From Lachnospiraceae bacterium (GTDB lineage Bacteria > Bacillota > Clostridia > Lachnospirales > Lachnospiraceae), in NCBI GenBank assembly GCA_017467845.1, contig JAFUKH010000026.1:1-53674 (forward strand): DNA of 53,674 nucleotides, read 5' to 3'. This document shows, one piece after another, positions 3,214 to 17,359 of the stretch (positions are counted from its first letter, which is position 1; each line of letters begins with the position of its first letter). Under the pieces are notes generated by a model. That model made no database searches. It was not told the origin of the DNA and saw only the letters and a program-made list of their open reading frames with translations. A program made the translations under genes and the position numbers.

Positions 3214-5016
3214 ATGGCAGAGTCAATGAAAGGCTTAAAGAGAAGCTATAGATGTGGTGAGATTACCACCGCTAATATCGGCGAAACCGTAACCGTGATG
3301 GGTTGGGTGCAGAAGCAGCGTAATAAAGGTGGTATCGTATTCGTAGACCTTAGAGACAGAGCAGGTATCCTGCAGGTTATCTTCGAAGAGAGTGAGTGCG
3401 GAACCGAGTATTTTGAGAAGGCAGGAAAGCTTCGTAGTGAATTTGTAGTAGCAGTGGTAGGTAAGGTTTGTAAGCGTGAAGGCGCGGTAAATGAGAACTT
3501 AGCTACCGGTGAAATCGAAATCCGTGCTACCGAAGTACGTATTTTATCCGAAGCAGAGACTCCTCCTTTCCCTATTGAGGCAGATTCTAAGACCAAGGAA
3601 GAGCTTCGTTTAAAATATCGTTATTTAGATTTAAGAAGACCGGATATCCAGAAGAATCTTATTTTAAGAAGTAAGATTGCAACCACTATCCGTGCATATT
3701 TAGCTGAGGAAGGTTTCCTTGAGATTGAGACCCCGATTTTATGTAAGTCTACCCCTGAGGGAGCAAGAGATTACTTAGTGCCAAGTCGTGTGCATCCCGG
3801 CAACTTCTACGCACTTCCACAGTCTCCGCAGATTTTCAAGCAGCTCCTGATGTGCTCCGGATACGACAGATATTTCCAGATTGCAAAGTGCTTCCGTGAT
3901 GAGGACCTTCGTGCAGACAGACAGCCGGAGTTTACTCAGGTGGATATGGAGCTTTCTTTCGTAGATGTGGATGATGTAATCGCAGCAACCGAAGGAATGG
4001 TTGCAAGAGTATGTAAGGAAGCTATCGGCCATGAGGTGACCTTACCGATTCCTCGTATGACATGGCAGGAAGCTATGGACAGATTTGGTAGTGACAAGCC
4101 GGATACCCGTTTTGGTATGGAACTTGTGAATGTATCAGAAGTGGTTAAGGACTGCGAATTCGGTGTATTCACCGGAGCGTTAGCAGCAGGCGGCAGCGTA
4201 CGTGGTATCAACGTAAAGGGACAGGCTGGTATACCTCGTAAGAAAATCGATGCATTGACCGCATTTGTGAAGGATTACGGTGCAAAGGGTCTTGCTTACC
4301 TTGCAGTACAGGAGGACGGAACCTACAAGTCATCCTTTGCAAAGTTTATGACCGAGGAGCAGCTTGACGCGTTGGTTAAGGCTATGAACGGTGAGAAGGG
4401 TGATCTGTTATTCTTCGCAGCAGATAAGAACAGTGTCGTATGGGCAAGCCTTGGTGCACTGAGATGTGAAGTGGCTAAGCAGCTTGAGATGATTGATGAA
4501 AATAAATTCAACTTCCTGTGGGTAACCGAGTTCCCACTCCTTGAGTGGGATGAGGAAGCGGAGAGATTCGTAGCAATGCATCATCCGTTTACCATGCCTA
4601 TGGACGAGGACTTACAGTATTTAGATACCGATCCGGGCCGCGTACGTGCGAAGGCTTACGATATCGTATTAAACGGCGTAGAGCTGGGTGGCGGTAGCGT
4701 ACGTATCTTCCAGAACGATGTGCAGGAGAAGATGTTTAAGTGCCTTGGCTTCACCATGGAGCAGGCTTATGAGCAGTTCGGATTCTTATTAAATGCGTTT
4801 AAGTATGGTGTTCCGCCTCACGCAGGACTTGCCATCGGTCTTGACCGTTTCGTAATGCTCCTTGTAAAGGCTGACAACATCCGTGAGGTTATCGCATTCC
4901 CGAAGGTGAAGGACGCATCCTGTCTCATGACCGATGCACCAAACCTTGTAGACCCTAAGCAGCTGGATGAGTTAGAAATTGCGTTAAAGGTTCAGCCATG
5001 CACAGAAAATGAGTAG
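3214..5016 (+). CDS. aspS: Aspartyl-tRNA synthetase
   Basis: Class II synthetase of 600 residues, the bacterial AspRS length including the GAD insertion domain. It opens with an OB-fold anticodon-binding domain (V-M-G-W-V-Q-K-Q-R-N-K-G-G near residue 30), followed by the catalytic core with F-R-D-E-D-L-R-A-D-R-Q-P-E-F-T-Q (motif 2) and G-L-A-I-G-L-D-R-F (motif 3). The ATG at 3214 is chosen over an upstream in-frame codon because GGCGAGGAATT precedes it and family members begin here. Its last codons lie in a 17-bp sequence that recurs at 5153-5169. Removal of the intervening segment would add one residue (Val) before a stop, which suggests an insertion at the 3' end. Confidence 0.96.
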   Translation: MAESMKGLKRSYRCGEITTANIGETVTVMGWVQKQRNKGGIVFVDLRDRAGILQVIFEESECGTEYFEKAGKLRSEFVVAVVGKVCKREGAVNENLATGEIEIRATEVRILSEAETPPFPIEADSKTKEELRLKYRYLDLRRPDIQKNLILRSKIATTIRAYLAEEGFLEIETPILCKSTPEGARDYLVPSRVHPGNFYALPQSPQIFKQLLMCSGYDRYFQIAKCFRDEDLRADRQPEFTQVDMELSFVDVDDVIAATEGMVARVCKEAIGHEVTLPIPRMTWQEAMDRFGSDKPDTRFGMELVNVSEVVKDCEFGVFTGALAAGGSVRGINVKGQAGIPRKKIDALTAFVKDYGAKGLAYLAVQEDGTYKSSFAKFMTEEQLDALVKAMNGEKGDLLFFAADKNSVVWASLGALRCEVAKQLEMIDENKFNFLWVTEFPLLEWDEEAERFVAMHHPFTMPMDEDLQYLDTDPGRVRAKAYDIVLNGVELGGGSVRIFQNDVQEKMFKCLGFTMEQAYEQFGFLLNAFKYGVPPHAGLAIGLDRFVMLLVKADNIREVIAFPKVKDASCLMTDAPNLVDPKQLDELEIALKVQPCTENE

Positions 5017-5175: not shown

Positions 5176-5712
5176 ATGATTTATATTCTTTCCATGAAAG
5201 ATAAGGATAAAGAAAAACGGAAAGAGGCGCAGAGGCGCCTTTTTTCGTATGCGGTTTTTCAGAAGGGCTGGGAGCAGGATGGCGTCAGTCAGGTGAGCTA
5301 TGAGGAGCTTCCGTTGGAAGACTGTGGCTTGGAAATCCTGCGAAGCGAACATGGCAAGCCCTATGTGGAGGGCAATCCGTGGTATTTTAATACCTCTCAC
5401 TCCGGGGAATATCTGGTGATGGCGTTTGATACAGTACCCGTGGGAATCGATGTGCAGGAAATGCGTCTGGTAAAAAAGCCGGAGCTGATTGCGAGGAGGT
5501 TTTCTTCTGAGGAGAGAGCGTACGCACTTTTCGGAGGCGCAGAAGCCTTCTATCAGGTGTGGTGCCGCAAGGAGGCTTACGCCAAATGTGTAGGAAGTGG
5601 TCTGACGGATGAGGTATTTGCAAAGAACTTACTGGGGGCTGTGGAAGGATATGTGTTCATGGATGCATTTGCGGCAGAACACTATCGGATGTGTGTTTGC
5701 CGGGCTATTTAA
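5176..5712 (+). CDS. 4'-phosphopantetheinyl transferase, Sfp/AcpT family
   Basis: 178-residue enzyme expected to transfer phosphopantetheine from CoA to the serine of a carrier protein. Visible family motifs are V-G-I-D-V-Q (Mg-binding Asp, near residue 92) and F-Y-Q-V-W-C-R-K-E-A-Y-A-K (the W-x-x-K-E-A-x-x-K motif, near 135-147). The protein is shorter than B. subtilis Sfp (about 220 residues), so it may be a compact form. The ATG at 5176 follows GAGG at 5166. No polyketide or NRPS gene is in the window, so the partner carrier protein is unknown. It lies just after the aspS repeat element, and a terminator follows at 5829. Confidence 0.82.
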   Translation: MIYILSMKDKDKEKRKEAQRRLFSYAVFQKGWEQDGVSQVSYEELPLEDCGLEILRSEHGKPYVEGNPWYFNTSHSGEYLVMAFDTVPVGIDVQEMRLVKKPELIARRFSSEERAYALFGGAEAFYQVWCRKEAYAKCVGSGLTDEVFAKNLLGAVEGYVFMDAFAAEHYRMCVCRAI

Positions 5713-6025: not shown

Positions 6026-7864
6026 ATGGAAATAGAACTACGAGAAATGGGAGATGATAAACCTATGATTAAGATGCAAATCGGTCAGATAATCTACGAT
6101 ATCAGAACAGAAATGAAGATAAGCCAGGAGGAGTTAAGCTATGGTCTTTGTACGGTATCTGCGCTGTCAAAGTATGAAAACGGAACCAGATTCCCGGACA
6201 GCCTTCTTTTTCATGCATTTATGGAGCGATTGGGGAAATCACCCACTCGAGTCATGATTATGATTTCGGAGCAAGATTTTGCATACTATGAATGGAAAAA
6301 GAAGACTCAGGATGCTATCAAGAGGCAGAGATGGGAAGAGGTAAAAAATTTGCGTGACTGGGGACATGCGAAGAATCCGGAAATCAATGAAGTAATGCAG
6401 AAGCAGTATGAGCTGTACTTAGATTCTATTATATGGGACAAATTAAATCATAATATGCAAAGGTCCTATGAATGCATCAGGGAAGCGATACAGCTTACCA
6501 TACCGGATATCTATGCATGGGACGAGAGCAAAGGACTTATCAGTGGTTATGAAATGAATATGGTTTTTTTGTATTTGCGTGCACAGAAGCGATTGGGAAT
6601 GGAGAATAGCTCAGAAATAAAGAGGCTTTTTGACACATTTGTAAGATATGTGGATAGGAGAGTAAGTGATATTTTTGAAATATCTAAAATCTATCCCAGA
6701 TTGGTCTGTGCCATGGTGCATTTAAATGGTCAGAGCATGGATGTAAAAGAGCGCATCCTTCTGGAGAAGAAAGCCTTACAGCAGCTTAAGAGAACTATGG
6801 AAATCTATGATATGCCGGAACTTCTGCGACTGCTTGCAGAGGATTTGCGGAGTATCGGTGAAGTGGAGGCTGTCATCTACGAAAAGCAGGGAGAGGCACT
6901 TGGCAGTGTGCTTGGTAAGTACAGCGTACCTTACGTATTTCTGCTGGAGAGCTGGTGTGATTGTAATGACCAGATATGTTTGATGAACGAATATCTTCGT
7001 GCAGGGAGACTGCAGAAGCAGATGACACAGGAGGAGCTGAGTGAGGGAATATGTGCGGTAGAGACTTATTCCCGTATTGAAAGCGGAAGGAGAACACCGA
7101 GTAAGAAAAATTATCGGGAATTGACAGAACGTCTGGAACTTAATTGGGGATATTATCGGGGACAGATTGTTACGTCGCATTATAAAGACTTTGAACTGAT
7201 GTCGGAGCAACGTTTTGATATGCTGGAAGGGAAGCTGGAACGTTCGGAGGAGTATCTTTATTATTTGAAAAAGCGGTTGAACATGGAGATTGTTGAGAAT
7301 AAGCAGTACATTGAACTGCAGGAGATTATAATATCGGATCTAAAAGGTGAAATGAAGGGAGATACCTTTGTGGAGCGGTGCAGAGAGATTTTGGGATATA
7401 CATTGGCGGATGTGAAGAGTGTACAACGTTTTTTAACCAAAACAGAGCTTGAGCTAATTTATCAGATAGGGTGGTTTTATGAAAGCATTAAAGAACATGA
7501 ACTGACGAAGAATATATTGGAAGTTATTCTGGAAAAATATGAGAAGAGAAGCAATTCCTCATGGTATGAGGTGGGACTTATGAAACGTATGCTTGCTGGT
7601 GCCTATTCTGAATTAAGAGAGTTTGAAAAAAGTAATGAGTTGGTATATAAGCTGATTCGAGAAATGACAGAGTGGCAGAGTGGGCAGACGCTGGCAGAAT
7701 CGGTTTATTTGCTAGCGTGGAACTATGAGAATCAAAAAAAAGCTTGTGATGATTTGTACATCAAAGCTTTTTATCTGAGTGACTTATTTGAAAATCAGAT
7801 GCATCGTCCAATTTTCAAACAGTACTATGAGGATAATTTTAATGCGGAGATGAAGTGGTATTAA
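6026..7864 (+). CDS. TPR regulator with two XRE-type helix-turn-helix domains (RRNPP-like)
   Basis: 612-residue cytosolic DNA-binding protein with an unusual repeated layout. HTH 1 lies near residues 18-70 (Q-I-I-Y-D-I-R-T-E-M-K-I-S-Q-E-E-L-S ... L-S-K-Y-E-N-G-T-R-F-P). A helical TPR-like region follows, then HTH 2 near 320-375 (R-L-Q-K-Q-M-T-Q-E-E-L-S-E-G ... Y-S-R-I-E-S-G-R-R-T-P), then a second helical region to the end. Rgg/PlcR/NprR-like regulators pair one HTH with TPR repeats that bind an imported peptide. Here the adjacent secreted peptide gene (7861-8010, minus) overlaps the last 4 bases and is a likely ligand source. The start is uncertain: ATG 6026 has a weak SD, while ATG 6065 is preceded by GGGAG and begins just before HTH 1. 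Target inference: the palindrome at 8098-8143. Confidence 0.8.
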   Translation: MEIELREMGDDKPMIKMQIGQIIYDIRTEMKISQEELSYGLCTVSALSKYENGTRFPDSLLFHAFMERLGKSPTRVMIMISEQDFAYYEWKKKTQDAIKRQRWEEVKNLRDWGHAKNPEINEVMQKQYELYLDSIIWDKLNHNMQRSYECIREAIQLTIPDIYAWDESKGLISGYEMNMVFLYLRAQKRLGMENSSEIKRLFDTFVRYVDRRVSDIFEISKIYPRLVCAMVHLNGQSMDVKERILLEKKALQQLKRTMEIYDMPELLRLLAEDLRSIGEVEAVIYEKQGEALGSVLGKYSVPYVFLLESWCDCNDQICLMNEYLRAGRLQKQMTQEELSEGICAVETYSRIESGRRTPSKKNYRELTERLELNWGYYRGQIVTSHYKDFELMSEQRFDMLEGKLERSEEYLYYLKKRLNMEIVENKQYIELQEIIISDLKGEMKGDTFVERCREILGYTLADVKSVQRFLTKTELELIYQIGWFYESIKEHELTKNILEVILEKYEKRSNSSWYEVGLMKRMLAGAYSELREFEKSNELVYKLIREMTEWQSGQTLAESVYLLAWNYENQKKACDDLYIKAFYLSDLFENQMHRPIFKQYYEDNFNAEMKWY

Positions 7865-8010
7865 TGTCCGGTTCCCTTTGAAAATGGTGGAATATCCAAA
7901 GGCATCACTTCGTAGGGATTCTCATAGGAGTCGGTGGTTGAAGTGATGGGGGTAATACATAGGCATGCAATCATAGTTAAGAGTAACAGTTTTTTAAAGA
8001 TTTTTTTCAT
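7861..8010 (-). CDS. Small secreted propeptide, candidate quorum-sensing signal
   Basis: A 49-codon gene not evident from long-ORF inspection. It starts at 8010 with AAGGAG nine bases upstream, and stops at 7861 inside the end of the convergent regulator gene (4-base overlap). The N-terminus is M-K-K-I-F-K-K followed by a hydrophobic stretch L-L-L-L-T-M-I-A-C-L-C-I, a standard Sec signal peptide. The remaining tail of about 25 residues is polar to proline-rich and contains V-M-P-L-D-I-P-P-F. Size, signal peptide, short variable tail and position beside a TPR regulator match the propeptides of RRNPP systems (Phr, PapR, SHP). Its promoter is mirror-symmetric with that of the radical SAM operon across the palindrome at 8098-8143. 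No homologue is recognised by eye; the mature sequence is unknown. Confidence 0.75.
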   Translation of the reverse strand: MKKIFKKLLLLTMIACLCITPITSTTDSYENPYEVMPLDIPPFSKGTGH

Positions 8011-8073
8011 TTGTCGGTTCTCCTTATATTAATTATTTGCTTGGTATGATACAAATTCCAACATACAACAAGT

Positions 8074-8079
8074 AGTATA
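8074..8079 (-). promoter_or_regulatory. -10 element of the propeptide promoter
   Basis: On the minus strand TATACT lies exactly 19 nt from the CATGGG edge of the palindrome (8099). The position of a -35 reads TGGGAA, far from consensus, suggesting activator dependence. Confidence 0.5.
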
Positions 8080-8097
8080 AGTTATTGTAAGTTTATT

Positions 8098-8143
8098 TCC
8101 CATGATGTTTTTGGAAAAAATTATTTCCAAAAACGTCATGGGA
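8098..8143. promoter_or_regulatory. Shared operator palindrome between divergent promoters
   Basis: Arms 8098-8117 and 8124-8143 are 20 bp with one mismatch (T versus C at one position); the centre is AAATTA. Arm core: CCCATGA and GTTTTTGGAAA. It sits between the propeptide gene (minus) and the radical SAM operon (plus). Both promoters place a -10 hexamer 19 nt beyond the CATGGG edge and lack a good -35. Likely the binding site of the adjacent HTH regulator (inference). A terminator reading is less likely: only short T runs follow and it lies between divergent starts. Confidence 0.65.
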
Positions 8144-8161
8144 TTTCTTTATATACGGAGT

Positions 8162-8167
8162 TACAAT
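8162..8167 (+). promoter_or_regulatory. -10 element of the radical SAM operon promoter
   Basis: TACAAT, exactly 19 nt from the CATGGG edge of the palindrome (8142). It is followed by a short leader with the SD AAGGGGG at 8182-8188. No recognisable -35; its position falls on the palindrome arm. Confidence 0.5.
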
Positions 8168-8196
8168 GGCAACATTGAAACAAGGGGGACGATGAA

Positions 8197-9528
8197 ATGA
8201 AGAAATCATTCTATAATTTCTTTTATAAAATTGAGGAAGGTATTTTAGCGTATAATTCAAAATCTAATGCCATGGCAGTTATTGAACAGGATAAGTTAGA
8301 TACTTTTAAAAAAATAATAAAAGATGAGACATGTGAGGATACTCAGTTTATCGATGAATTAAAATATGGTGGGTTTATTATCGAAGATCATGTGGATGAA
8401 TTATTAGAATTGCGGCACGACATGTATTCTAATAGATTTGCTAACAATATGCTTGCATTAACTATTGCACCAACTTCAGATTGTAATTTTAGATGTCCAT
8501 ATTGTTATGAAAAGGATGTGTTGCATTTACAGAGTATGACAGATGAAATTGCAGATAAGTTGGTGAAGTTTGTTGAACAACAAGCTGCGGGCATTGGTAG
8601 TTTGGAGATAACTTGGTATGGTGGGGAACCATTATTGGAATTTCGAAGAATTCAGGACCTGAGTGAACGTTTCATGAAGATTTGTGAAGAACATGAAGTG
8701 CATTATGAAGCAGGAATTGTGACAAATGGCTATCTTTTGACAAAAGATGTGTTAGAACAGCTAATACAATATAAAGTACGAACTATACAGATTACTTTGG
8801 ATGGGACAAAAGAAACTCATGATAGTAGAAGATATTTGAGGAATCATGGGGGCACATTTGATAAGATTGTATCAAATTTATTATCTTTAAAAGATTTAGC
8901 GGCTTCAAATGAGAAATTTCCTGCAATTAATGTACGAATAAACGTTGATCAGACTAATAAGGATGAGGCATTCGAATTGCTTGATTTCATCGACAAGTCT
9001 CCTTTCAGAGCATATGTAACACCATATGTAGCTGGAGTGTATGATGAAAAAGATTTGGAACACAAATATACATTAACAGACAGTGAGTATGGAAAACTTA
9101 AAAATAAATTCTTAAAGGAACTAGAAAAACGGGGATATAGCATAGATTATAGTGCTTATTATCCGCAAAGAATAACCGCAAACTGTTGTTGCGATCGGTA
9201 CAATGCAGTGGTTGTAGATGCTCATGGCAATTTCTATAAGTGTTGGGAAGAAATTGGGAATATGGATTCTTGTATAGGACAGCTAGGGGCAGATATTAAT
9301 TTCAATTTGCCTAAATGTTATTTTGACTATTTGTTATATGACCCCACATTAGATGAAGAATGCAAGAAATGCAAGATTCTTCCTGTTTGTATGGGCGGTG
9401 GTTGTCCGGTTAGACGAGAACGAGATAAGAGAAGAAATTGTAATTATCAGCTAGAATGTTTTAAAGATGGAATTATGAATAGTGCAGAGAAACTAGGAAA
9501 GGTAATTTCACAAGAGATTAATCTTTAA
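8197..9528 (+). CDS. Radical SAM/SPASM peptide maturase
   Basis: 443-residue enzyme expected to modify the cysteine-rich peptide encoded next (9576-9740). An N-terminal region of about 85 residues (Y-K-I-E-E-G-I-L-A-Y-N, then G-G-F-I-I-E-D) probably recognises the precursor. The radical SAM motif C-N-F-R-C-P-Y-C uses Cys96, 100 and 103; W-Y-G-G-E-P-L-L near 140-147 is the SAM-binding strand. The C-terminal SPASM region has many cysteines (330-332, 349, 359, 374, 389, 392, 398, 403, 415, 421), enough for two auxiliary Fe-S clusters. Known relatives install thioether or C-C crosslinks in sactipeptides and ranthipeptides; which bond forms here cannot be read from sequence. The ATG at 8197 has AAGGGGG eight bases upstream. 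First gene of a divergent, probably peptide-induced operon. Base composition is A+T-richer than the housekeeping genes. Confidence 0.9.
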   Translation: MKKSFYNFFYKIEEGILAYNSKSNAMAVIEQDKLDTFKKIIKDETCEDTQFIDELKYGGFIIEDHVDELLELRHDMYSNRFANNMLALTIAPTSDCNFRCPYCYEKDVLHLQSMTDEIADKLVKFVEQQAAGIGSLEITWYGGEPLLEFRRIQDLSERFMKICEEHEVHYEAGIVTNGYLLTKDVLEQLIQYKVRTIQITLDGTKETHDSRRYLRNHGGTFDKIVSNLLSLKDLAASNEKFPAINVRINVDQTNKDEAFELLDFIDKSPFRAYVTPYVAGVYDEKDLEHKYTLTDSEYGKLKNKFLKELEKRGYSIDYSAYYPQRITANCCCDRYNAVVVDAHGNFYKCWEEIGNMDSCIGQLGADINFNLPKCYFDYLLYDPTLDEECKKCKILPVCMGGGCPVRRERDKRRNCNYQLECFKDGIMNSAEKLGKVISQEINL

Positions 9529-9575
9529 TTAGAGTCATACTGCTGATAAAACTATTATAGAATGGGGGATAAAAG

Positions 9576-9740
9576 ATGACATATTTAACAAATCCACAGA
9601 ATACTACCAAAACGATAACTTCATGTACTTGCTATCAGGGAACATATAGTGTTGTTTGCACTCATAACCCTTGTACAGCAAAATGCTCAACATTTCAGGT
9701 ATGTGTAACGCCAACAGGTGCAAAAATGTCGCCTACTTAA
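9576..9740 (+). CDS. Six-cysteine RiPP precursor peptide
   Basis: A 54-codon gene with a strong SD (GGGGG at 9564-9568) and ATG at 9576. The first 16 residues (M-T-Y-L-T-N-P-Q-N-T-T-K-T-I-T-S) are Thr/Asn-rich, and then six cysteines follow at 17, 19, 28, 33, 37 and 43 among Thr, Ser, Tyr and His residues. The tail is G-A-K-M-S-P-T. There is no Sec signal and no Gly-Gly leader. Its place between a SPASM maturase and an ABC exporter is the standard layout for a radical SAM RiPP substrate. It recalls Cys-rich families such as SCIFF and Clo7bot, but I cannot assign it. The short N-terminus means either a minimal leader or a peptide modified without leader removal. The product could be a bacteriocin or a signal; this is not shown. 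Confidence 0.85.
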   Translation: MTYLTNPQNTTKTITSCTCYQGTYSVVCTHNPCTAKCSTFQVCVTPTGAKMSPT

Positions 9741-9820
9741 ATTGATATAGCACTTAATATTTTAAATTAAAAAATAAGGAAAATATCAGCAGTATGTTTT
9801 CTATAAAATAAAAACAAATT

Positions 9821-9851
9821 GTGAAAGTCAAAATGACTTTCACGTTTTGTT
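9821..9851 (+). terminator. Hairpin between precursor and transporter (partial terminator)
   Basis: GTGAAAGTCA (9821-9830), loop AAA, TGACTTTCAC (9834-9843), then GTTTTGTT. The stem is perfect but the T run is broken by G. Likely lets the precursor accumulate above the transporter mRNA, or protects its 3' end. The rest of 9741-9873 is A+T-rich with nothing else clear. Confidence 0.6.
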
Positions 9852-9873
9852 ATGATGAAAATGGGAAGGGACA

Positions 9874-11529
9874 ATGCAAAATATACTTAAATTCGGATTT
9901 CAATATATTAATAAATGTTCATATATAAGATATTTGTTTCTTTGTGCGGTAATGAGTCTGGTAGGAATGGTTTCACCATTGGTAATGGGGGAAATAATCA
10001 ATCATTTAGCTGAGAATGCAGGTGAAAAAGTTTTGATACAGAATGTAATTGCATTTGGTTTCATTAGTGTCTTGCAACAGGGAATGTCAGTTATTCAAAG
10101 CATTATGGAAGCAAGGCTTAACTCTGATGCAGAGTACAGAGCCAATAGAGGTATTATTGAAAAGCTTTACAATGCGTCTTACGCGAATATATGTAATGAA
10201 GATCCTGCTATGTTGAATCAGAAATTGAGTAATGATATAGGGAGCGTAGTCAATTTTTGTATTGCATTTTTTAGGGATATATTGATCAATATTGTCTTTA
10301 TTGTATGCATAGCGGTAATACTTCTTTCGCAATCGCTGTGGTTGTGGCTAGTTATTTTTGGACTAGTAATAACGTATATAATAGTTTATTTAATAGGTAA
10401 AAGAAAGATGTATGAAATCGGGCTTCTTTATAAAGAAGCACAGACAAGTTTTCTTGGAAAATTGTACGGGATGATTTTTTTTATGAAATCCATAAGGAAT
10501 AATGGATTTGTAAAGATGAGTTTTGCTAAACAAGATGATGAATATAAGCAATATTATGCTACGTTGTACAATCAACTCTCTGTTAATAATTTGTTTTATG
10601 CGACTGTGAATATGATTTCGTTAATGGCACAGGTCCTGTTGTTTCTGATTGGTGGAAAGATGGTATTGGATGGAAAACTGGGGATAGGATTTTTGGTAGC
10701 AATTTTAAATTATTTTTCGGGTCTTTTACAATCAACGGATTATTTTTTGAGTTTAGGACAAAACTATCAGAATACTTTAAGTAGTTACAAACGATTACTT
10801 CCATACAAAGATTTAGAGACTATGGTTCAGGGAGAGGGGCGAGTAGAAAAAATTGAATCTATAGGTATTCAAGAAGTAAGTTTTCGCTACCCGGGACAAC
10901 GTATATTATTTCAAATTAAAAGAGAAGGGTTGGAACGAGGGAAAATATATTGGCTAAAAGGAAAGAATGGTGTAGGAAAAACAACATTTATGAATGTACT
11001 CTTAGGATTGTATGGTAATACATATGGGGGGAATTTTTTCCTCAATAACACAAATATAAGAGAGCTCCAATGGGATGATTTTGTGGAAAAGAAGGTTGCG
11101 ATAATTGAGCAGGAACCATATTTATTAGCAGCGTCTTTAAAGGATAATATGTTATGTAAGGTGAAGGATGTAGATTACAGGAAAAAGGAGCAAGAGATGT
11201 ATGAACTTATTTCTGCTTTTGGGATGGATGAATTTATAGAAAAACAAATGCAGGGAATAGATACCGTATATAATTCGATGAGTTCAGTTATGTCTGGAGG
11301 CGAGAAACAGAAAATAGCGATTATACGGATGTTGTTGTCTGATGCGGATATCTGGTTATTGGATGAACCAACTTCTGCACTAGATGTAGATAGTACGGAG
11401 TTCTTCTTCAAAGAACTAGAAAGAAGAAAGACAGAACATATCATTTTAATGATATCTCATGAAGTGCCAAGGAATTATGATGGTATTATTCGTTTAGAGA
11501 ATTATGCACAAAATAATGGAGAAAAATAA
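9874..11529 (+). CDS. ABC exporter with fused membrane and ATPase domains
   Basis: 551-residue half-transporter, probably a homodimer. The N-terminal 300 residues hold about six membrane spans (for example V-M-S-L-V-G-M-V-S-P-L-V-M-G and I-L-I-N-I-V-F-I-V-C-I-A-V-I-L-L). The C-terminal ATPase has Walker A G-K-N-G-V-G-K-T-T near residue 367, signature M-S-G-G-E-K-Q, Walker B L-L-D-E-P-T-S and the H-loop S-H-E. It lacks an N-terminal C39 peptidase domain, consistent with the precursor having no Gly-Gly site. Most likely it exports the modified six-cysteine peptide. ATG 9874 follows GGAAGGG. The stop abuts the start of the next gene. Confidence 0.9.
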   Translation: MQNILKFGFQYINKCSYIRYLFLCAVMSLVGMVSPLVMGEIINHLAENAGEKVLIQNVIAFGFISVLQQGMSVIQSIMEARLNSDAEYRANRGIIEKLYNASYANICNEDPAMLNQKLSNDIGSVVNFCIAFFRDILINIVFIVCIAVILLSQSLWLWLVIFGLVITYIIVYLIGKRKMYEIGLLYKEAQTSFLGKLYGMIFFMKSIRNNGFVKMSFAKQDDEYKQYYATLYNQLSVNNLFYATVNMISLMAQVLLFLIGGKMVLDGKLGIGFLVAILNYFSGLLQSTDYFLSLGQNYQNTLSSYKRLLPYKDLETMVQGEGRVEKIESIGIQEVSFRYPGQRILFQIKREGLERGKIYWLKGKNGVGKTTFMNVLLGLYGNTYGGNFFLNNTNIRELQWDDFVEKKVAIIEQEPYLLAASLKDNMLCKVKDVDYRKKEQEMYELISAFGMDEFIEKQMQGIDTVYNSMSSVMSGGEKQKIAIIRMLLSDADIWLLDEPTSALDVDSTEFFFKELERRKTEHIILMISHEVPRNYDGIIRLENYAQNNGEK

Positions 11530-12927
11530 ATGCAATACGAATTAAAAGCAATATTTCGAAGTAAAGTGACACTAATATGTATGTTTATCTGCATAATCTT
11601 AGGAATGCAGACTTTCATACAGATGGAAGTTGATTATCAAACTTCGCAAGTGGACAAGGCTAGTAATATGCTTCGATATGAGCAAAATGTAGCTTTCTAT
11701 CAGGAGCAGATTGAATTGAATGAATCTCAGTGGGATTATTATTTGAATTCAGTATATAGGACAAAAGCGCAGCAGGCTGTATTTTTTGCAGAGCATGAGT
11801 ATCTCAAGTGGCTACGGAATGCATGGCAGGAATGTTATGATTATATTGAGAATTATGGATATGACCGCCAGGAAGTGTGGAAATTAGAAGCCAGAATTGC
11901 AATTATTAGTGGTTTGTGTGACATGAGTACACTATCTTATGAAAAGGAAGGATATTTTCCAGCTACAGTAGTATTTGCTGAGGAACTTGAACGAAATCGA
12001 GAATCCTTGAGGTTAGATGAATTAACTTTTTCATTGGATGCATTTTCCAATAGTCCTTTTATGACAGATGAAGACAGAAAGTATAGCGTAACAGAATATT
12101 TGAGTAGAAAGAATTATGTTGAGATGTGGCTGGATGCATGGGAATGTCCGGAGCACTTAAATGGCAACATTGCATCACCATATACATTCTGGGCGAGGTT
12201 TTTCAGCTTCTATGATTATCAGGGAATCATCATTGGAAGCATAGTGATTATGTTTTCTGCATTTTATATGACAGAATGCAAGAAAAGTGGTAGTAGACAG
12301 TTACTGGAGCTTGCTCCATATTCTGATATTCAAAAAGCCGGGTATTATTATAAGGCAATTTTGGTGGCAATACTTTGTATTCTGTGTTGTGCTGTAGGTA
12401 TACCCACATTATTAGCGGGCGTTTTTCATGGCTTCGGCGGACTAGGGACAATTATGTGGGTGGATTATGAGAATTTCAATGGCTGGATTCCGTATGAGCA
12501 TGGAGAAGGCTTTTCTACAGTGTTTTTGGGAAAGGTATATTATGATTACATAGAAAATGGTAAAACATTACCATTAATTTTACAGGAAAAGGCCAAAATT
12601 ACTCTTGGACAGTTTTTACTTCCAGCATCAATATTGGGAACTATAAAATTGCTTTGCTATACATTGCTTGGGTTTACAATTGGCTACCTTGGCCGGAAAC
12701 AGGGACGAACTTTATTAGTAGCAGTACTGGTAACTGGGGGATATATCATTTCGCAGTATACTGATGTAGGCATGAAGTGGAATCCACTGGCTGTAAAGAA
12801 TGCTTGGGATGTAACTAGCGGAGGAACAAATGTAACGTGGCTGAACGCGGTTGTTATTGTATTGGTAGGAATTGGTATTCTTCTGGGAGTACACGTTTTC
12901 TTGGGTAGGAAAAAGGATTATTGCTAG
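11530..12927 (+). CDS. ABC-2 type permease-like membrane protein
   Basis: 465 residues. It begins with one membrane span (L-I-C-M-F-I-C-I-I-L-G-M), followed by a long extracytoplasmic domain of about 200 residues rich in Tyr, Trp and Glu, then about five membrane spans from residue 230 on (G-I-I-I-G-S-I-V-I-M-F-S-A-F-Y onward). This span-loop-spans layout is common in permeases of bacitracin- and lantibiotic-immunity ABC systems. It starts at the base after the exporter stop, with GGAGAAAAATAA as SD. It probably forms one complex with the ATPase at 12942 and the permease at 13856. Role in immunity to, or sensing of, the peptide is inferred from context only. Confidence 0.75.
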   Translation: MQYELKAIFRSKVTLICMFICIILGMQTFIQMEVDYQTSQVDKASNMLRYEQNVAFYQEQIELNESQWDYYLNSVYRTKAQQAVFFAEHEYLKWLRNAWQECYDYIENYGYDRQEVWKLEARIAIISGLCDMSTLSYEKEGYFPATVVFAEELERNRESLRLDELTFSLDAFSNSPFMTDEDRKYSVTEYLSRKNYVEMWLDAWECPEHLNGNIASPYTFWARFFSFYDYQGIIIGSIVIMFSAFYMTECKKSGSRQLLELAPYSDIQKAGYYYKAILVAILCILCCAVGIPTLLAGVFHGFGGLGTIMWVDYENFNGWIPYEHGEGFSTVFLGKVYYDYIENGKTLPLILQEKAKITLGQFLLPASILGTIKLLCYTLLGFTIGYLGRKQGRTLLVAVLVTGGYIISQYTDVGMKWNPLAVKNAWDVTSGGTNVTWLNAVVIVLVGIGILLGVHVFLGRKKDYC

Positions 12928-12941
12928 AGGAGAGGAAGAAA

Positions 12942-13844
12942 ATGGATATTTTATCTGTAAAAGGATTAAAAAAGAGTTTTGGGAAAAATCAGATTTTAAA
13001 AGGTATAGATTTTTCCATTGGAGAAAAGGAAATAGTTGGTTTTTTAGGACCAAATGGTTCGGGAAAATCTACTACAATAAAGTGCATCACAGGATTGTAC
13101 CATATGACAGAAGGAGAAATTAAAATCTGCAATTATAATATTGTAAAAGAGCGTACCAAGGCACTTTCCATGTTAGGAGTAAGTATTGAGGCTCCAGCGT
13201 TATATCCTCAATTGACGGGGATGGAGCATTTGAAAATGATGGGAAAGTGGCGAAAAGTCAGTTCAGAGCGTGTGAGGGAGATGGCAGAGTATACAGGAAT
13301 TGGTCATAATTTAAAACGACGGATAGGTACATATTCCATGGGTATGAAGATGCGTCTGATGCTTGCCATGACAATGATGGCAAAGCCAGCACTTTTAATT
13401 CTGGATGAGCCCACCAATGGACTAGATCCCCAAGCGGTATTTGAGTTACGTGAAGAAATGGAGAAGATAAGGGAGGCAGGTTCTTCCATTCTTTTTTCTA
13501 GCCATCAGCTTAGTGAAGTTGAAAAACTATCAGACCGTGTAGTGATTCTAAATCACGGAGAGATGATATATGATGGAAAACTTCCTAAGGATATTGCGGG
13601 GACACAGTATCAGATACAAGTAGAACCGATGCACCAGCGTGTATGTTTAGACAAAATTGATAGCTTAGGCATTCAAAACTGTGGAATTAAGGAAAATACC
13701 ACAGATTGGATTTGCTTTCAAGCAGAATCCCAGGAATCACTGGGGAAGGTGCTAGCAGAGGTGGGGCATGTTAGCCAAATCATAGATGTGGTGAAATGTG
13801 AAATGAATTTGGAAGAGTTTTACAAAAGAATATATCAAAGGTAG
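12942..13844 (+). CDS. ABC transporter ATPase, BcrA/lantibiotic-immunity type
   Basis: 300-residue cytosolic ATPase. Walker A is G-P-N-G-S-G-K-S-T-T near residue 38, signature Y-S-M-G-M-K-M-R-L near 130, Walker B L-L-I-L-D-E-P-T-N-G-L-D-P near 150, and H-loop S-S-H-Q near 185. The C-terminal 100 residues follow the pattern of BcrA/CcmA-like subunits that pair with separate ABC-2 permeases. The ATG at 12942 is preferred to an upstream TTG at 12921 because AGAGGAAG lies directly before it and the TTG overlaps the preceding stop codon. It lies between two permease genes, so both are likely partners. Confidence 0.88.
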   Translation: MDILSVKGLKKSFGKNQILKGIDFSIGEKEIVGFLGPNGSGKSTTIKCITGLYHMTEGEIKICNYNIVKERTKALSMLGVSIEAPALYPQLTGMEHLKMMGKWRKVSSERVREMAEYTGIGHNLKRRIGTYSMGMKMRLMLAMTMMAKPALLILDEPTNGLDPQAVFELREEMEKIREAGSSILFSSHQLSEVEKLSDRVVILNHGEMIYDGKLPKDIAGTQYQIQVEPMHQRVCLDKIDSLGIQNCGIKENTTDWICFQAESQESLGKVLAEVGHVSQIIDVVKCEMNLEEFYKRIYQR

Positions 13845-13855
13845 TGGTGTAAGGT

Positions 13856-15031
13856 ATGTTGAGGAACGAGATTTGTATGTTTTTTTCTGCAAAGAATATA
13901 TGTGCTTTATTTCTTGCGTTGGTCACGACTTTGATGGTATATCAATATGCTTACATTCCTGCTTATGAAAGTGTGCCACAGGAAGAGATTGCTAAAATTG
14001 AGAATCAGATGAACGATGTGTCATTCTACATAAAAAAATATAAAGATATGATTGCGCAGTATGAAGAAATTGAGCCCCAGAATGAAAGTATTGATGATTT
14101 GAGGGCTATGTTGAAAATCTGGGAAAAATATGATTCCAGAAAAAAAATGCTGACAGCCCTATGGATTTCGCCAGAAAATGATGCAGACACCATATTGCTT
14201 TTCAATAGACAAATTGATGAAATGATGGTGGATGCGCCAACAGGGATGGACTTAGGGATTGAGTTAATCTATGATGAGAATCAAAGAGACTGGCAAGGAC
14301 GTATGCTGTTACATGCTGCATATGAAAAGGAAGGATGGCAAGAGCCGGTTATTTCCAATAAACCTACGGGAGGGTATGTATTATATGATGCGTTGTCTGG
14401 AAAAACAGTGATATTCCTAGTTCTAGTAATACTGGTGATGTTTTGGAATTATGACATCTGGTCTTTTGATTTTGATAATGCAACATATAAGTTATTATAC
14501 ACATTACCATACAGTAAGAATAGAATCTTTGCAATTCGGTGTTTGGTACATTGGCTAGGTAGTCTAATTGGAGTATTGATAGTGCTTAGCTGTCTTTTTG
14601 TTAAGGGGACGAGTGTATTTGGTACGGGATTGGAGTCATTTCAGATAGTGAATGAACAGGCGCTTACGCATTTTGGAGGGTTTTCAGAGGAAATGCTTTT
14701 CTTAGGAAATGGTGATTTTGCCATGAAGCTTAAGGATGCAATTATTCTGCGCTTGGGACTTACTATGCTTTTTTTGACGTTACTTTTCTGCGTGTTGCAA
14801 TTTATATCTTTTTCAGTAGCAAATGGAACATCTGTAATTATTACGTTTACTACGATTTTATTATTGGTTTGTTCTACGTCCATTATGGGTGTAAACCTGA
14901 CTGTGGAAAATGAGGCAGTGCTATCTGGAGATATGGGAATTGGTGTTCCGCTTGTAATCTTGATTGAGATTTGTACAGCTATAGTCTTTTTGATATGGAC
15001 AAATTGGTGGATGCACCACCGAGAGGTTTAA
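13856..15031 (+). CDS. ABC-2 type permease-like membrane protein (second subunit)
   Basis: 391 residues, with the same plan as the 465-residue permease: an N-terminal span (I-C-A-L-F-L-A-L-V-T-T-L-M-V-Y), an extracytoplasmic domain of about 150 residues, then about five spans from K-T-V-I-F-L-V-L-V-I-L-V-M-F-W. The two permeases flank a single ATPase gene, suggesting a heteromeric transporter. ATG 13856 lies 11 nt after the ATPase stop. Last gene of the radical SAM peptide operon; no clear terminator follows before the next promoter at 15046. Confidence 0.75.
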   Translation: MLRNEICMFFSAKNICALFLALVTTLMVYQYAYIPAYESVPQEEIAKIENQMNDVSFYIKKYKDMIAQYEEIEPQNESIDDLRAMLKIWEKYDSRKKMLTALWISPENDADTILLFNRQIDEMMVDAPTGMDLGIELIYDENQRDWQGRMLLHAAYEKEGWQEPVISNKPTGGYVLYDALSGKTVIFLVLVILVMFWNYDIWSFDFDNATYKLLYTLPYSKNRIFAIRCLVHWLGSLIGVLIVLSCLFVKGTSVFGTGLESFQIVNEQALTHFGGFSEEMLFLGNGDFAMKLKDAIILRLGLTMLFLTLLFCVLQFISFSVANGTSVIITFTTILLLVCSTSIMGVNLTVENEAVLSGDMGIGVPLVILIEICTAIVFLIWTNWWMHHREV

Positions 15032-15045
15032 ATGTTGGCATGCAT

Positions 15046-15074
15046 TTGACAGAATAAGGAAATATGCATATAAT
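15046..15074 (+). promoter_or_regulatory. Consensus sigma-A promoter
   Basis: TTGACA (15046-15051), 17-nt spacer, TATAAT (15069-15074): both hexamers match consensus. It drives the small membrane protein gene at 15113 and marks the end of the accessory island. Confidence 0.8.
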
Positions 15075-15112
15075 CATATTGTAATATTTTTCTTACCTAG
15101 GAGGGAAGTTTC

Positions 15113-15529
15113 ATGGAGAAAACAAAATTAGGCATTTCTGTCGGACTTATGGGTGCAATTATTTTCTTAATCGCACTTGGCGGAGGTATGACTCCACTTT
15201 TATTACTTGCAGGTTATGTGTTCTTTAAGGAAGAGAATGTATGGCTGAAGAAGAATGCAGTGAAGGCAATCGTAGTTTTATTGGTATACTACATTGCATA
15301 CTATGCACTTGGCCTTATTCCGGATGTTTTAGGGGTACTGTTAGATACTATCGGACTTGTAGGCTTGAATATTTCTTTATCCTTCATTAACAACCTGATT
15401 TACATCCTGAGAGATGCAGTTAGTATTGTAAAGACTCTTATCTTATTATTAAGCGGTTTAGCAGCATTAAATATGGGTACTGTCAAGGTTTCCTTTATCG
15501 ATAACCTTATTGATAAGCATATGAACTAA
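15113..15529 (+). CDS. Small membrane protein of unknown function
   Basis: 138 residues with about three to four hydrophobic spans: residues 8-40 (I-S-V-G-L-M-G-A-I-I-F-L-I-A-L-G), 50-80 (A-I-V-V-L-L-V-Y-Y-I-A-Y-Y-A-L-G) and 100-120 (I-V-K-T-L-I-L-L-L-S-G-L-A). There is no catalytic motif and I do not recognise the family. SD AGGAGGG lies before ATG 15113. It has its own consensus promoter and its own terminator, so it is a single-gene unit, probably well expressed. Confidence 0.75.
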   Translation: MEKTKLGISVGLMGAIIFLIALGGGMTPLLLLAGYVFFKEENVWLKKNAVKAIVVLLVYYIAYYALGLIPDVLGVLLDTIGLVGLNISLSFINNLIYILRDAVSIVKTLILLLSGLAALNMGTVKVSFIDNLIDKHMN

Positions 15530-15546
15530 TTTGTATTGCTATTTTG

Positions 15547-15577
15547 AGAGCGCAGAATTGTTTCTGCGCTCTTTTTA
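15547..15577 (+). terminator. Rho-independent terminator
   Basis: AGAGCGCAGAA (15547-15557) pairs with TTCTGCGCTCT (15562-15572), followed by TTTT. It ends the small membrane protein transcript. Confidence 0.85.
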
Positions 15578-15619
15578 TGTTATGATTTAAAGGATGTTTT
15601 AATATAGGAGCAGTGTGTT

Positions 15620-17359
15620 ATGAAGAAACTTTTTAAGTACTTAAAAGACTATACAAAGGAATGTATTCTGGCGCCCCTTTTTAAGCTGCTGGAGGCTTCT
15701 TTTGAATTGTTCATTCCATTGGTTATTGCCTCCATTGTAGATAAAGGTATCAGCAATCAGGATACTGGCTACATATTGAAAATGGGTGGCATTTTAGTGA
15801 TTTTGGCAATCGTAGGACTTGTCAGTGCGGTGACGGCACAGTTCTTTGCGGCGAGAGCGGCAGTGGGCTTTGCGGCGAAGCTGCGTAGCGCTCTTTTCGG
15901 ACATATTCAGGGGCTGAGCTATACCAATCTTGATAAAGCGGGAACATCGACCCTGATTACACGCATGACCAGCGACATTAATCAGGTGCAGTCCGGCGTA
16001 AATATGGTACTGCGCTTGTTCCTTCGTTCCCCCATTATTGTATTCGGTGCCATGATTATGGCATTTACTATCGATGTGAAGAGTGCCCTTATTTTTGTGG
16101 TGGCGATTCCACTCCTTGCCATCGTGGTATTTGGTGTGATGCTGGTGACGATTCCCTTATATCGTAAGGTGCAGAGCAGCCTGGATAAGGTACTGGGAAT
16201 TACCAGAGAGAATCTGACCGGTGTACGTGTGATTCGTGCGTTCCATAGGGAAGCGGAAGAGCAGGAGAAGTTTGGGGATTTAAATGATACGCTGGTTGAT
16301 TTGCAGAATTTCGTAGGAAAAATCAGTGCGGTAATGAATCCGGTGACGTATGTGATTGTAAACGGTGCCATTGTGTTGCTTATCTATACCGGTGCCGTGC
16401 AGGTAAATGTAGGTAACCTGACCCAGGGTGAGGTTGTAGCGATTATTAATTACATGTCTCAGATTCTGGTGGAGCTGGTGAAGCTGGCCAACTTGATTGT
16501 GACCGTGACCAAGGCTATGGCCTGTGCAGACCGTGTGGCAGCAGTGTTTGAGATTGAAAATGAAGTAAACACCCCGGCGGAGAAGTTTATATCAGAGGGA
16601 GCAGAGATTCCGTTCCTTGCATTTCAGAATGTGTCCTTGAAGTACGCTGGAGCCGGTGAGGAGACACTGAATAATATCAGCTTCCGTGTGAAAAAGGGAG
16701 AGACCATCGGTGTGATTGGTGGTACCGGATGTGGAAAGACCTCTCTAGTGAATCTGATTGCCGGATTTTATAAGGCTACCAAGGGTGGCGTGTTTGTAAA
16801 CGGTGTGGATATTAAGGAGCTTCCCGAGGAGGAGATTGGTGCTCTGGTGGGTATTGTACCCCAGAAGGCAGTTCTTTTTAAGGGAACCATCCGAAGCAAC
16901 CTGCAGTGGGGAAATCCTGACGCTACGGATGAGCAGCTTTGGGAGGCTATTACTCTTGCCCAGGCTAAAGAAGTTGTAGAGGGTAAGGATGGACAGCTGG
17001 ATGCACATGTTGCCCAGAATGGTAAGAATTTGTCCGGTGGCCAGAGACAGCGTCTGACCATTGCCAGAGCTCTGGTAAAGAAGCCGGAGATTTTGATTTT
17101 GGATGATAGTGCATCTGCTCTTGACTATGCAACGGATGCAAAGCTTCGCGCTGCACTGAAGACCATCGAGGATACTACAACAACCTTTATTGTATCCCAG
17201 AGAGCATCCACCATCCGTCATGCGGATCAGATTATTGTGCTGGACGATGGAGAGATGGCCGGTATCGGTACTCATGAGGAACTTTTACAAAGCTGTGAAG
17301 TGTATCAGGAGATTTATTATTCTCAGTATCCGAAGGAGGGAGGTGCCGCAAATGAGTAA
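15620..17359 (+). CDS. Heterodimeric ABC exporter, subunit with degenerate ATPase site
   Basis: 579 residues: an N-terminal six-span exporter domain, then an ATPase domain with Walker A G-G-T-G-C-G-K-T-S near residue 370 and signature L-S-G-G-Q-R-Q-R. Two key positions are altered. After Walker B the sequence is L-I-L-D-D-S-A-S-A-L-D (Asp in place of the catalytic Glu), and the switch region reads V-S-Q-R (Gln in place of the His). This is the usual degenerate partner of a heterodimeric multidrug-type exporter. The next gene, overlapping by 8 nt, has the intact residues. Substrate unknown. Confidence 0.9.
   Translation: MKKLFKYLKDYTKECILAPLFKLLEASFELFIPLVIASIVDKGISNQDTGYILKMGGILVILAIVGLVSAVTAQFFAARAAVGFAAKLRSALFGHIQGLSYTNLDKAGTSTLITRMTSDINQVQSGVNMVLRLFLRSPIIVFGAMIMAFTIDVKSALIFVVAIPLLAIVVFGVMLVTIPLYRKVQSSLDKVLGITRENLTGVRVIRAFHREAEEQEKFGDLNDTLVDLQNFVGKISAVMNPVTYVIVNGAIVLLIYTGAVQVNVGNLTQGEVVAIINYMSQILVELVKLANLIVTVTKAMACADRVAAVFEIENEVNTPAEKFISEGAEIPFLAFQNVSLKYAGAGEETLNNISFRVKKGETIGVIGGTGCGKTSLVNLIAGFYKATKGGVFVNGVDIKELPEEEIGALVGIVPQKAVLFKGTIRSNLQWGNPDATDEQLWEAITLAQAKEVVEGKDGQLDAHVAQNGKNLSGGQRQRLTIARALVKKPEILILDDSASALDYATDAKLRAALKTIEDTTTTFIVSQRASTIRHADQIIVLDDGEMAGIGTHEELLQSCEVYQEIYYSQYPKEGGAANE

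What the first reader, a model, noticed from the sequence alone, without database searches (positions are those of the whole stretch)
6026..15031. Complete candidate quorum-sensing-controlled radical SAM RiPP system
Seen: a TPR/HTH regulator, a convergent secreted propeptide gene, a shared palindrome, a SPASM maturase, a six-Cys peptide, an exporter and a three-gene ABC system, all in one A+T-rich island between housekeeping genes. Known: RRNPP regulators paired with peptide pheromones control radical SAM RiPPs in streptococci (Rgg/SHP). Inference: this is a separate clostridial version with an unusual two-HTH regulator and a Sec-type propeptide of 49 residues, controlling a Cys-rich peptide of unassigned class.
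Basis: partly seen in the sequence, partly recalled or inferred. Interest (0 to 1): 0.92.

Follow-up and report, generated by a model that had tools for sequence, protein, structure and literature searches.

The report
Twin-headed peptide-sensing switch, swappable cargo
A gut bacterium carries a two-headed DNA-binding receptor, the gene of the small secreted peptide it probably senses, and one mirror-image DNA switch that appears to control both that peptide gene and a modified-peptide (perhaps antimicrobial) operon; the same control unit recurs in related bacteria in front of different, exchangeable operons.

Summary
At 6065-15031 lie a PlcR-like regulator made of two homologous HTH+TPR-like halves, a convergent 49-aa secreted propeptide, a 46-bp palindrome, a radical SAM/SPASM maturase, a 6-Cys peptide, an exporter and a three-gene ABC set. 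Relatives show that the conserved unit is regulator + propeptide + palindrome. A convergent secreted propeptide follows 27 of 49 two-HTH regulators (1 of 483 control genes) and 13 of 19 held-out ones (0 of 154). The palindrome lies between two divergent promoters; in relatives with the same box a -10 hexamer starts 26-27 bp from GTCAT in 28 of 31 arms. Operator sequence follows regulator phylogeny. The propeptides share a weak motif, YEVMPLDI here. The RiPP cassette is replaceable: a close relative keeps regulator, propeptide and palindrome at the same locus but carries a different operon. A radical SAM gene lies within 1.8 kb downstream of 10 of 59 such regulators, scattered over the tree. 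Best reading: a fused-tandem variant of PlcR/TprA-type peptide signalling driving exchangeable, perhaps antimicrobial cargo. Peptide binding, the sign of regulation and the RiPP chemistry are not shown; the 6-Cys precursor has no convincing homologue in 299 family and 61 genus genomes.

The parts
6065..7864 (+). Two-HTH PlcR-like regulator, 599 aa (an ORF start at 6026 gives 612 aa); halves about residues 1-300 and 310-599
   Evidence: Pfam HTH_3 twice; halves homologous; family profile matches PlcR 2qfc E 1.9e-19; start supported by the 69% relative
7861..8010 (-). Secreted 49-aa propeptide gene, convergent with the regulator, stops overlap by 4 bp; predicted pheromone core around EVMPLDI
   Evidence: Co-conserved with the regulator, 59% identical in the syntenic relative, pS 0.71 vs pN 0.25, shared tail motif
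8074..8079 (-). -10 element TATACT of the propeptide promoter
   Evidence: Offset 41 from the palindrome centre, the modal offset in relatives
8098..8143 (.). Palindromic operator TCCCATGATGTTTTTGGAAAAAA/TTATTTCCAAAAACGTCATGGGA
   Evidence: a perfect 24+24 bp version in L140
8162..8167 (+). -10 element TACAAT of the cassette promoter, 27 bp from the GTCAT box (8135-8139)
8197..9528 (+). Radical SAM/SPASM peptide maturase, 443 aa
   Evidence: PF04055; best NCBIfam TIGR04334 at 311 bits against a cut-off of 600
9576..9740 (+). Candidate RiPP precursor, 54 aa, Cys at 17, 19, 28, 33, 37, 43
   Evidence: Position and composition only; 13 of 5000 shuffles as good; no convincing homologue; small Cys peptides also stand beside some related maturases
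9820..9844 (+). Hairpin with T-rich tail between precursor and exporter, possible partial terminator
9874..11529 (+). ABC exporter (membrane + ATPase), 551 aa, no peptidase domain matched
   Evidence: PF00664, PF00005
11530..12927 (+). ABC-2-type permease, 465 aa, probable self-protection
   Evidence: Weak PF12679, below cut-off
12942..13844 (+). ABC ATPase, 300 aa, best NCBIfam lantibiotic-protection ATPase TIGR03740 (198 bits, cut-off 310)
13856..15031 (+). ABC-2-type permease, 391 aa
   Evidence: Weak PF13346, below cut-off
8144..15081 (+). Exchangeable cassette: nucleotide homology to the syntenic relative stops at 8143 and resumes at 15082
   Evidence: blastn

Best explanation
A peptide-pheromone switch of PlcR/TprA type, in a fused-tandem form seen here only in the window's family (Lachnospiraceae), controls a replaceable radical SAM RiPP cassette. 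The receptor is two HTH+TPR-like modules in one chain. Two chains (four HTHs) would sit on the palindrome, one chain per arm. The conserved box (GTCATGG) takes the place of the -35 element of two divergent promoters, one for the propeptide and one for the cassette. The propeptide would be exported by Sec, trimmed to a peptide around EVMPLDI(PP), re-imported by an oligopeptide permease and bound by the receptor, which then switches on both promoters: a positive loop that makes the modified Cys-rich peptide, its exporter and a protective ABC system at high density. Shown by comparison: module conservation, coding propeptide, operator and promoter register, cargo exchange. Inferred: peptide binding, activation rather than relief of repression (about 65:35), one chain per arm, antimicrobial role of the product.
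For: Homologous halves; profile match to PlcR. Convergent secreted propeptide at 27 of 49 two-HTH regulators vs 1 of 483 control genes, and 13 of 19 vs 0 of 154 held out with the rule fixed. Syntenic relative keeps regulator (69%), propeptide (59%) and a perfect 48-bp palindrome but carries different cargo. -10 hexamers (>=5 of 6) at 40-48 bp from the centre in 17 (cargo side) and 22 (propeptide side) of 32 palindromes (expected 4.2 and 5.4; 0 of 2000 shuffles). Register of 26-27 bp in 28 of 31 class A arms; all 6 arms of the loci not used to find it (L140, L162, L163) keep it. No -35 enrichment at the usual distance: 3 of 28 arms reach 4 of 6 matches, 15% by shuffling. Operator class changes once on the regulator tree (200 shuffles: mean 7.9, minimum 4); class-free Mantel test 0 of 2000. 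Propeptide tail motif: score 169-173 against 113 +/- 5, maximum 126, in 40 shuffled sets with equal seeds. Radical SAM gene within 1.8 kb downstream of 10 of 59 two-HTH regulators, upstream 0 of 64, control genes 4 of 574. One OppA-like binding-protein gene region in the genome.
Against: By the strict rule 22 of 49 and 6 of 19 two-HTH regulators lack a detected propeptide (5 of the 22 gain one by relaxed reading), and many lack a detected palindrome (21 of 51; 9 of 19). No transcription or binding data. TprA2, the closest characterised analogue by layout, is a repressor relieved by its peptide (PMC5436883, passages), so the sign may be reversed. The 6-Cys precursor is seen in one genome only. 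No structure could be predicted. The 40-48 bp stretch and the operator classes were chosen after seeing the palindromes; the Mantel test and the three later loci are the checks.
Confidence: 0.72

Rival explanations
1. Same module, opposite sign: the apo-receptor represses both promoters by covering their -35 regions and the imported peptide releases it, as for TprA2/PhrA2.
For: The box lies where -35 would be; TprA2 (PlcR family, small peptide on the opposite strand, next to a lanthipeptide cluster) works this way (PMC5436883 passages).
Against: The -35 position shows no more likeness to TTGACA than shuffled sequence (3 of 28 arms with 4 of 6 matches, mean 2.9 against 2.6), as expected of activator-dependent promoters. 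A rigid 26-27 bp register is more natural for contact with RNA polymerase than for simple blocking.
Confidence: 0.25
2. The small convergent gene is not a signal: it is a secreted effector or immunity peptide, and the regulator senses something else.
For: Tails vary much between loci; no direct evidence of import or binding.
Against: It stays with the regulator whatever the cargo, shares the regulator's operator, and its tails share a motif about nine residues from the end.
Confidence: 0.12
3. The palindrome is only an intrinsic terminator of the regulator transcript.
For: The consensus scan lists 8098-8143 with TTTCTTTATA as terminator-like, and it lies downstream of the regulator.
Against: A shared box among regulators only about 30% identical; -10 elements in fixed register on both sides; sequence tracks regulator phylogeny. 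A terminator explains none of these.
Confidence: 0.05
4. The finished RiPP, not the convergent propeptide, is the inducer (as with autoinducing lantibiotics, recalled).
For: The cassette carries its own exporter and protection genes.
Against: The control unit is kept with unrelated cargo, so the inducer cannot be the cargo in general.
Confidence: 0.05

Closest known systems
TprA/PhrA and TprA2/PhrA2 (Streptococcus pneumoniae)
   Same: PlcR-family receptor, small secreted peptide gene on the opposite strand, adjacent peptide-antibiotic cluster (PMC5436883, passages)
   Different: One HTH there (recalled), two here; C-terminal heptapeptide signal there, internal motif predicted here; lanthipeptide cargo there, radical SAM and other cargo here
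PlcR/PapR (Bacillus cereus group)
   Same: Best natural full-length match among solved structures by profile (2qfc, E 1.9e-19, profile 312-593 on chain 10-279)
   Different: Single module; PapR codirectional (recalled); PlcR has a regulon of many boxes (PMC2464732, abstract in listing), whereas here both half-sites occur together at one place in the genome
Rgg/SHP with RaS-RiPPs (streptococci); Group III Rgg with convergent, overlapping SHP
   Same: Peptide sensor next to radical SAM RiPPs; in Group III convergent overlap at the 3' end (PMC13361665, passages)
   Different: SHP and PrgQ propeptides use PptAB, not Sec (PMC10075063 passage); here a Sec-type propeptide and a two-HTH receptor. Profile similarity to 5w4m/4yv6 (listed as 'Transcriptional regulator', Rgg2 by recall) is weaker, E 6e-6 to 2.4e-5
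Qsr/Qsp systems of Clostridium acetobutylicum
   Same: Clostridial RRNPP-type receptor and adjacent peptide gene (PMC7376267, passages)
   Different: HTH in the N-terminal region only; qspB lies downstream of qsrB; affects solvent formation and sporulation
Clo7bot (TIGR04334) and TIGR04463 radical SAM/SPASM maturases
   Same: Best profile matches of the maturase, nearly full length
   Different: 311 and 295 bits against cut-offs of 600 and 525, so not a member of either curated family

Membership tests
RRNPP receptor (PlcR-like) | XRE-type HTH at the N-terminus | tested here: met
   Two HTH_3 stretches, one per half
RRNPP receptor (PlcR-like) | TPR-type peptide-binding region homologous to known receptors | tested here: met
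   Profile matches PlcR over 312-593; also engineered TPR proteins and kinesin light chains. By sequence only, no structure
RRNPP receptor (PlcR-like) | Receptor length 250-500 aa (signature used by RRNPP_detector, PMC10075063 passages) | tested here: not met
   599 aa; each half about 300 aa. Hence filed as a variant, not a plain member
RRNPP receptor (PlcR-like) | Adjacent gene for a small secreted propeptide (10-100 aa) | tested here: met
   49 aa, 4-bp overlap, signal-peptide-like N-terminus by a hydropathy rule
RRNPP receptor (PlcR-like) | Binds its imported peptide | not testable with these tools
   Needs a binding assay
TprA/PhrA | Peptide gene on the opposite strand and adjacent RiPP cluster | tested here: met
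TprA/PhrA | Single-HTH receptor (recalled) | tested here: not met
   Two homologous halves
Rgg/SHP | Short hydrophobic peptide not exported by Sec | tested here: not met
   49-aa propeptide with a Sec-type start and a hydrophilic tail
Clo7bot maturase TIGR04334 | Score over curated cut-off | tested here: not met
   311 of 600 bits
PapB ranthipeptide maturase NF047865 | Score over curated cut-off | tested here: not met
   150 of 340 bits
Radical SAM/SPASM RiPP maturase (broad) | CX3CX2C and SPASM-type Cys-rich C-terminus | tested here: met
   CNFRCPYC and the list of Cys positions, PF04055; near full-length matches to SPASM maturase models

The most novel reading that the evidence does not exclude
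A Lachnospiraceae-specific class of peptide signalling: single-chain fused dimers of PlcR-like receptors, whose unfused form survives as overlapping gene pairs on a similar operator. Four HTHs read a palindrome of roughly 40-65 bp that replaces the -35 elements of two divergent promoters at about 1-bp precision. A shared pheromone motif runs through the family. The unit acts as a portable control head behind which RiPP and other, perhaps antimicrobial, cassettes are exchanged by recombination at the palindrome edge. A published receptor survey that limits length to 250-500 aa would miss it.
Probability: 0.55. Interest if true: 0.86.

Novelty: new variant of a known kind. Interest (0 to 1): 0.74.

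Why it matters
Lachnospiraceae are major gut bacteria, and the listings of the paper searches run here (top 5-20 rows of each) showed no two-HTH receptor of this type. If right, this gives them a widespread signalling system with named receptor, propeptide, operator, promoter register and predicted pheromone core, all directly testable. It also gives a practical handle: a conserved control unit marks where unknown RiPP and other peptide cassettes lie and suggests how to switch them on. The published RRNPP_detector limits receptors to 250-500 aa by default (PMC10075063 passages) and would pass over it.

Tried and rejected
Rgg/SHP membership: rejected, see membership table. Palindrome as a mere terminator: rejected on register and phylogeny. 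My first guess that the -10 elements lie about 30 bp from the palindrome centre failed its test (observed no more than expected at 27-34); the enrichment is at 40-48. Curated maturase families: no cut-off was reached among the 25 models shown of 75. Homologues of the 6-Cys precursor: searches of 299 family and 61 genus genomes gave, apart from the window, best E-values of 0.005 and 4.7e-4 (G008:C103, 30 residues); the latter has no maturase match in its 3.1-kb stretch, so I take both as chance. The two nearest related maturases (38-39%) lie in genomes not listed with a regulator match; small Cys peptides beside some maturases were compared with the precursor by eye only. Rfam: no match at gathering threshold. 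Viral contigs: no close relative of the regulator. Relatives outside the family: 7 of 391 class-wide genomes matched, the window's own included; the three outside the family matched one half only, and that search scored at most 3 candidates a genome. Rest of the window (15.6-53.7 kb): not studied.

Counting notes. The propeptide rule was set after viewing 20 loci and applied to 51 two-HTH regulators, the window's included (49 away from contig edges); the 20 genus loci were held out (19 usable). The 51 are regulators of >=540 aa with >=400 bp downstream, not the same 51. The 49 tails were 25 of the 27 (L133 and L136, with unusual gaps, were left out), 4 from relaxed reading (L062, L063b, L107, L122), 6 beside partial or paired regulators, L140 and the 13 held-out ones. 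One search used unequal seeds (150 against 60); one search repeats it on 45 tails re-derived by rule, with equal seeds. Of the 49, 34 best placements lie 6-12 residues from the C-terminus, counted by eye; one search gives 29-32 of 45 against a shuffled mean of 12.2 and maximum of 16. One search's radical SAM counts (10 of 60, 1 of 65, 4 of 575) held duplicate loci; one search gives the corrected ones. The tree is a quick tree with long branches flagged; 24 of its 72 rows have an assigned operator class.
Full report
What is there. The window lies in a 3.0-Mb genome about 86% complete, taken to be Lachnospiraceae because its syntenic relative is labelled so. Reading left to right: a phosphopantetheinyl transferase gene (5176-5712); the regulator; on the other strand a 49-aa ORF whose stop overlaps the regulator's by 4 bp; a 46-bp palindrome; a radical SAM/SPASM maturase; a 54-aa ORF with six Cys; an ABC exporter without a matched peptidase domain; and permease-ATPase-permease genes whose ATPase is closest to lantibiotic-protection ATPases, below that model's cut-off. 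The regulator start should be moved to 6065.

The regulator. It has two HTH domains about 300 residues apart. The halves are homologous over 260 columns (hhalign 99.9%, E 1.2e-31), so it is a tandem duplication of an HTH+TPR-like module. The family profile (alignment A1, 18 rows) matches PlcR of known structure at E 1.9e-19, structures 5w4m and 4yv6 (Rgg2 by recall) at 6e-6 to 2.4e-5, and ComR at 6e-4; engineered TPR proteins and kinesin light chains match as well. The profile matches 49 of 397 sampled family genomes, 20 of 61 genomes of the same genus and 7 of 391 genomes drawn from the class. These counts include one-half matches; the three class-wide matches outside the family are one-half only. 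In the loci fetched, 51 two-HTH regulators of 540 aa or more were found in the first set and 20 in the genus set. Some genomes have two adjacent single-HTH genes overlapping by 19-28 bp instead (L070, L126, L127, L134). Three of these have the propeptide and a long palindrome (two with the same box, L126 with a variant), which looks like the unfused state.

The propeptide. A fixed rule was used: convergent ORF of 30-90 aa, ribosome site, basic start and hydrophobic stretch, stop within -60 to +200 bp of the regulator's stop. It finds one at 27 of 49 two-HTH regulators and 1 of 483 other genes in the same loci (Fisher p 7e-31). On loci not seen when the rule was made it finds 13 of 19 against 0 of 154 (p 2e-15). 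Five of the misses gain one by relaxed reading. The close relative's propeptide is 59% identical with pS 0.71 and pN 0.25, so the gene is translated and under purifying selection. A simple motif search on the tails finds a shared pattern (roughly G-I/V-S-P/T-C/L/Y-S/N-D). With equal seeds on 45 tails the score is 169-173 against 113 +/- 5 (maximum 126) in 40 shuffled sets, and 29-32 of 45 placements lie 6-12 residues from the C-terminus against a shuffled mean of 12 and maximum of 16 (first run). In the window it falls on YEVMPLDI, nine residues before the C-terminus. The pheromone is therefore probably internal and trimmed on both sides.

The operator and its promoters. Long inverted repeats lie just upstream of the propeptide gene. 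One scoring 11 or more lies within 700 bp downstream of 30 of 51 regulators of 540 aa or more and of 36 of 289 control genes; at the expected place it is found for 10 of 19 held-out regulators and 2 of 92 controls. Loci with distant regulators share a box: CCATGAC.TTT..GGAAA and its mirror. GTCATG is present in 10 of 32 right arms where 0.12 is expected. A second class of box, CAACTCTGTC, belongs to another branch of the family. Over the 24 regulators assigned to the two classes (of 72 on the tree) only one change is needed, against a mean of 7.9 and a minimum of 4 in 200 shuffles. A class-free Mantel test of operator against regulator distance, on 39 palindromes, gives rho -0.33, 0 of 2000 permutations as extreme, also for distant pairs alone. 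A -10 hexamer matching at least 5 of 6 stands 40-48 bp from the centre in 17 of 32 palindromes on the cargo side and 22 of 32 on the propeptide side (expected 4.2 and 5.4); both sides at once, at 4 of 6, hold in 22 of 32 (the stretch was chosen). Measured from the GTCAT box, a -10 (4 of 6 or better) starts at 27 bp in 23 arms and 26 bp in 5 arms of 31; no other offset has more than 6, and all 6 arms of L140, L162 and L163, not used, keep it. At the usual -35 distance the arms match TTGACA no better than shuffled sequence. In the window TACAAT (8162-8167) faces the maturase and TATACT (8079-8074) faces the propeptide. The box thus occupies the -35 position of both promoters. Both half-sites are found together at this one place in the genome; one further two-mismatch match (C63) is at the level of the control pattern, so the switch looks local.

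Cargo exchange. L140 (JAFTXD010000034.1, Lachnospiraceae MAG RGIG4230, roe deer colon) is the same chromosomal place: flank segments are 78-89% identical in nucleotides. It has the regulator (69%), the propeptide and a perfect 24+24 bp palindrome. But blastn homology stops at the palindrome's right edge (window 8143) and resumes at 15082. Between lies a different operon: a 137-aa protein with a signal-like start, proteins of 245 and 509 aa, an ABC ATPase and a 217-aa protein, with its own -10 26 bp from the box. Elsewhere a radical SAM gene lies on the same strand within 1.8 kb downstream in 10 of 59 two-HTH regulators (upstream 0 of 64, control genes 4 of 574). On the tree these ten need ten changes, the most possible, as in shuffles (mean 9.5). 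The six radical SAM proteins scanned are of several kinds: CcpM-like (L066, 495 of 500 bits), AlbA-like (L069), PapB-like (L102), CXXX-repeat type (L112), TIGR04463-like and PapB-like (two in L133). L102 and L162 repeat the window's order: regulator, propeptide, palindrome, maturase, small Cys peptide.

Mechanism. The best reading is PlcR/TprA-type signalling with a receptor fused in tandem. One chain offers two HTHs; two chains on the palindrome would offer four, which suits arms of mostly 17-33 bp. Lack of a -35 at the usual place and the rigid spacing favour activation by the bound receptor; the TprA2 precedent (PMC5436883, passages) favours relief of repression. I put 65:35. Import is possible in principle, since an SBP_bac_5 gene is present. 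The RiPP chemistry is open: the maturase is a near full-length but sub-threshold relative of Clo7bot and TIGR04463 enzymes, and the 54-aa precursor is assigned by position and Cys content only.

Against the reading. Strict detection misses a propeptide in 22 of 49 and 6 of 19 regulators and a palindrome in 21 of 51 and 9 of 19. The nearest other relatives (L051, two copies at 33%) have the operator box and a cargo-side -10 but no clear secreted ORF, and one copy lacks a -10 in register on the propeptide side. Nothing has been measured, and no structure could be predicted.

Known or new. RRNPP signalling, peptide genes on the opposite strand (TprA2/PhrA2; Group III Rgg, PMC13361665, passages) and quorum-controlled radical SAM RiPPs are known. 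Three surveys (PMC10075063, PMC12700828, PMC9765709) hold no 'two HTH' in the main text searched (passages seen), and the first limits receptors to 250-500 aa. In PMC3601992 'two helix-turn-helix' refers to a Rap conformational change (passage). Listings of paper searches showed no such receptor either; many subscription papers are not held. I call it a new variant of a known kind.

Noticed in passing
L133 (G289:C15:380000-399000), 13967-16639 +: One 890-aa ORF joins HTH modules of this regulator family (residues about 1-460) to a radical SAM/SPASM maturase (about 460-890): receptor and RiPP enzyme in one chain.
   Followed up: partly
L070, L126, L127, L134: Two adjacent single-HTH genes, overlapping 19-28 bp, match the N- and C-half of the fused regulator; three of the four have the convergent propeptide and a long palindrome.
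   Followed up: partly
L063 (G079:C77), 522-2309 - and 11599-13404 +: Two copies of the whole control unit, in opposite orientation about 9 kb apart, with nearly the same operator.
   Followed up: no
L051 (G087:C5), 2865-3577: An AgrD-like 46-aa ORF and a 189-aa ORF (likeness recalled, not tested) near an exporter, next to one of the closest two-HTH regulators: perhaps two peptide-signalling systems side by side.
   Followed up: no
L056, L120, L140 (first cargo gene): A second kind of cargo: proteins of 100-137 aa with signal-like starts; in L056 and L140 with ABC genes downstream. Those of L056 and L120 look alike by eye; function unknown.
   Followed up: partly
L055 (G087:C15), 6475-14313: A 504-aa two-HTH relative with a radical SAM maturase and a 48-aa peptide ending DACTCTGNCHTVKIN about 5 kb downstream.
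   Followed up: no
window 15046-15074: A perfect TTGACA-17-TATAAT match just before the point where homology to the relative resumes; it could drive the 138-aa gene at 15113.
   Followed up: no
window 6065-8143 against L140: Synonymous sites of the regulator are saturated (pS 0.75) while aspS nearby has pS 0.45: the control unit may have been exchanged between lineages as a block.
   Followed up: no
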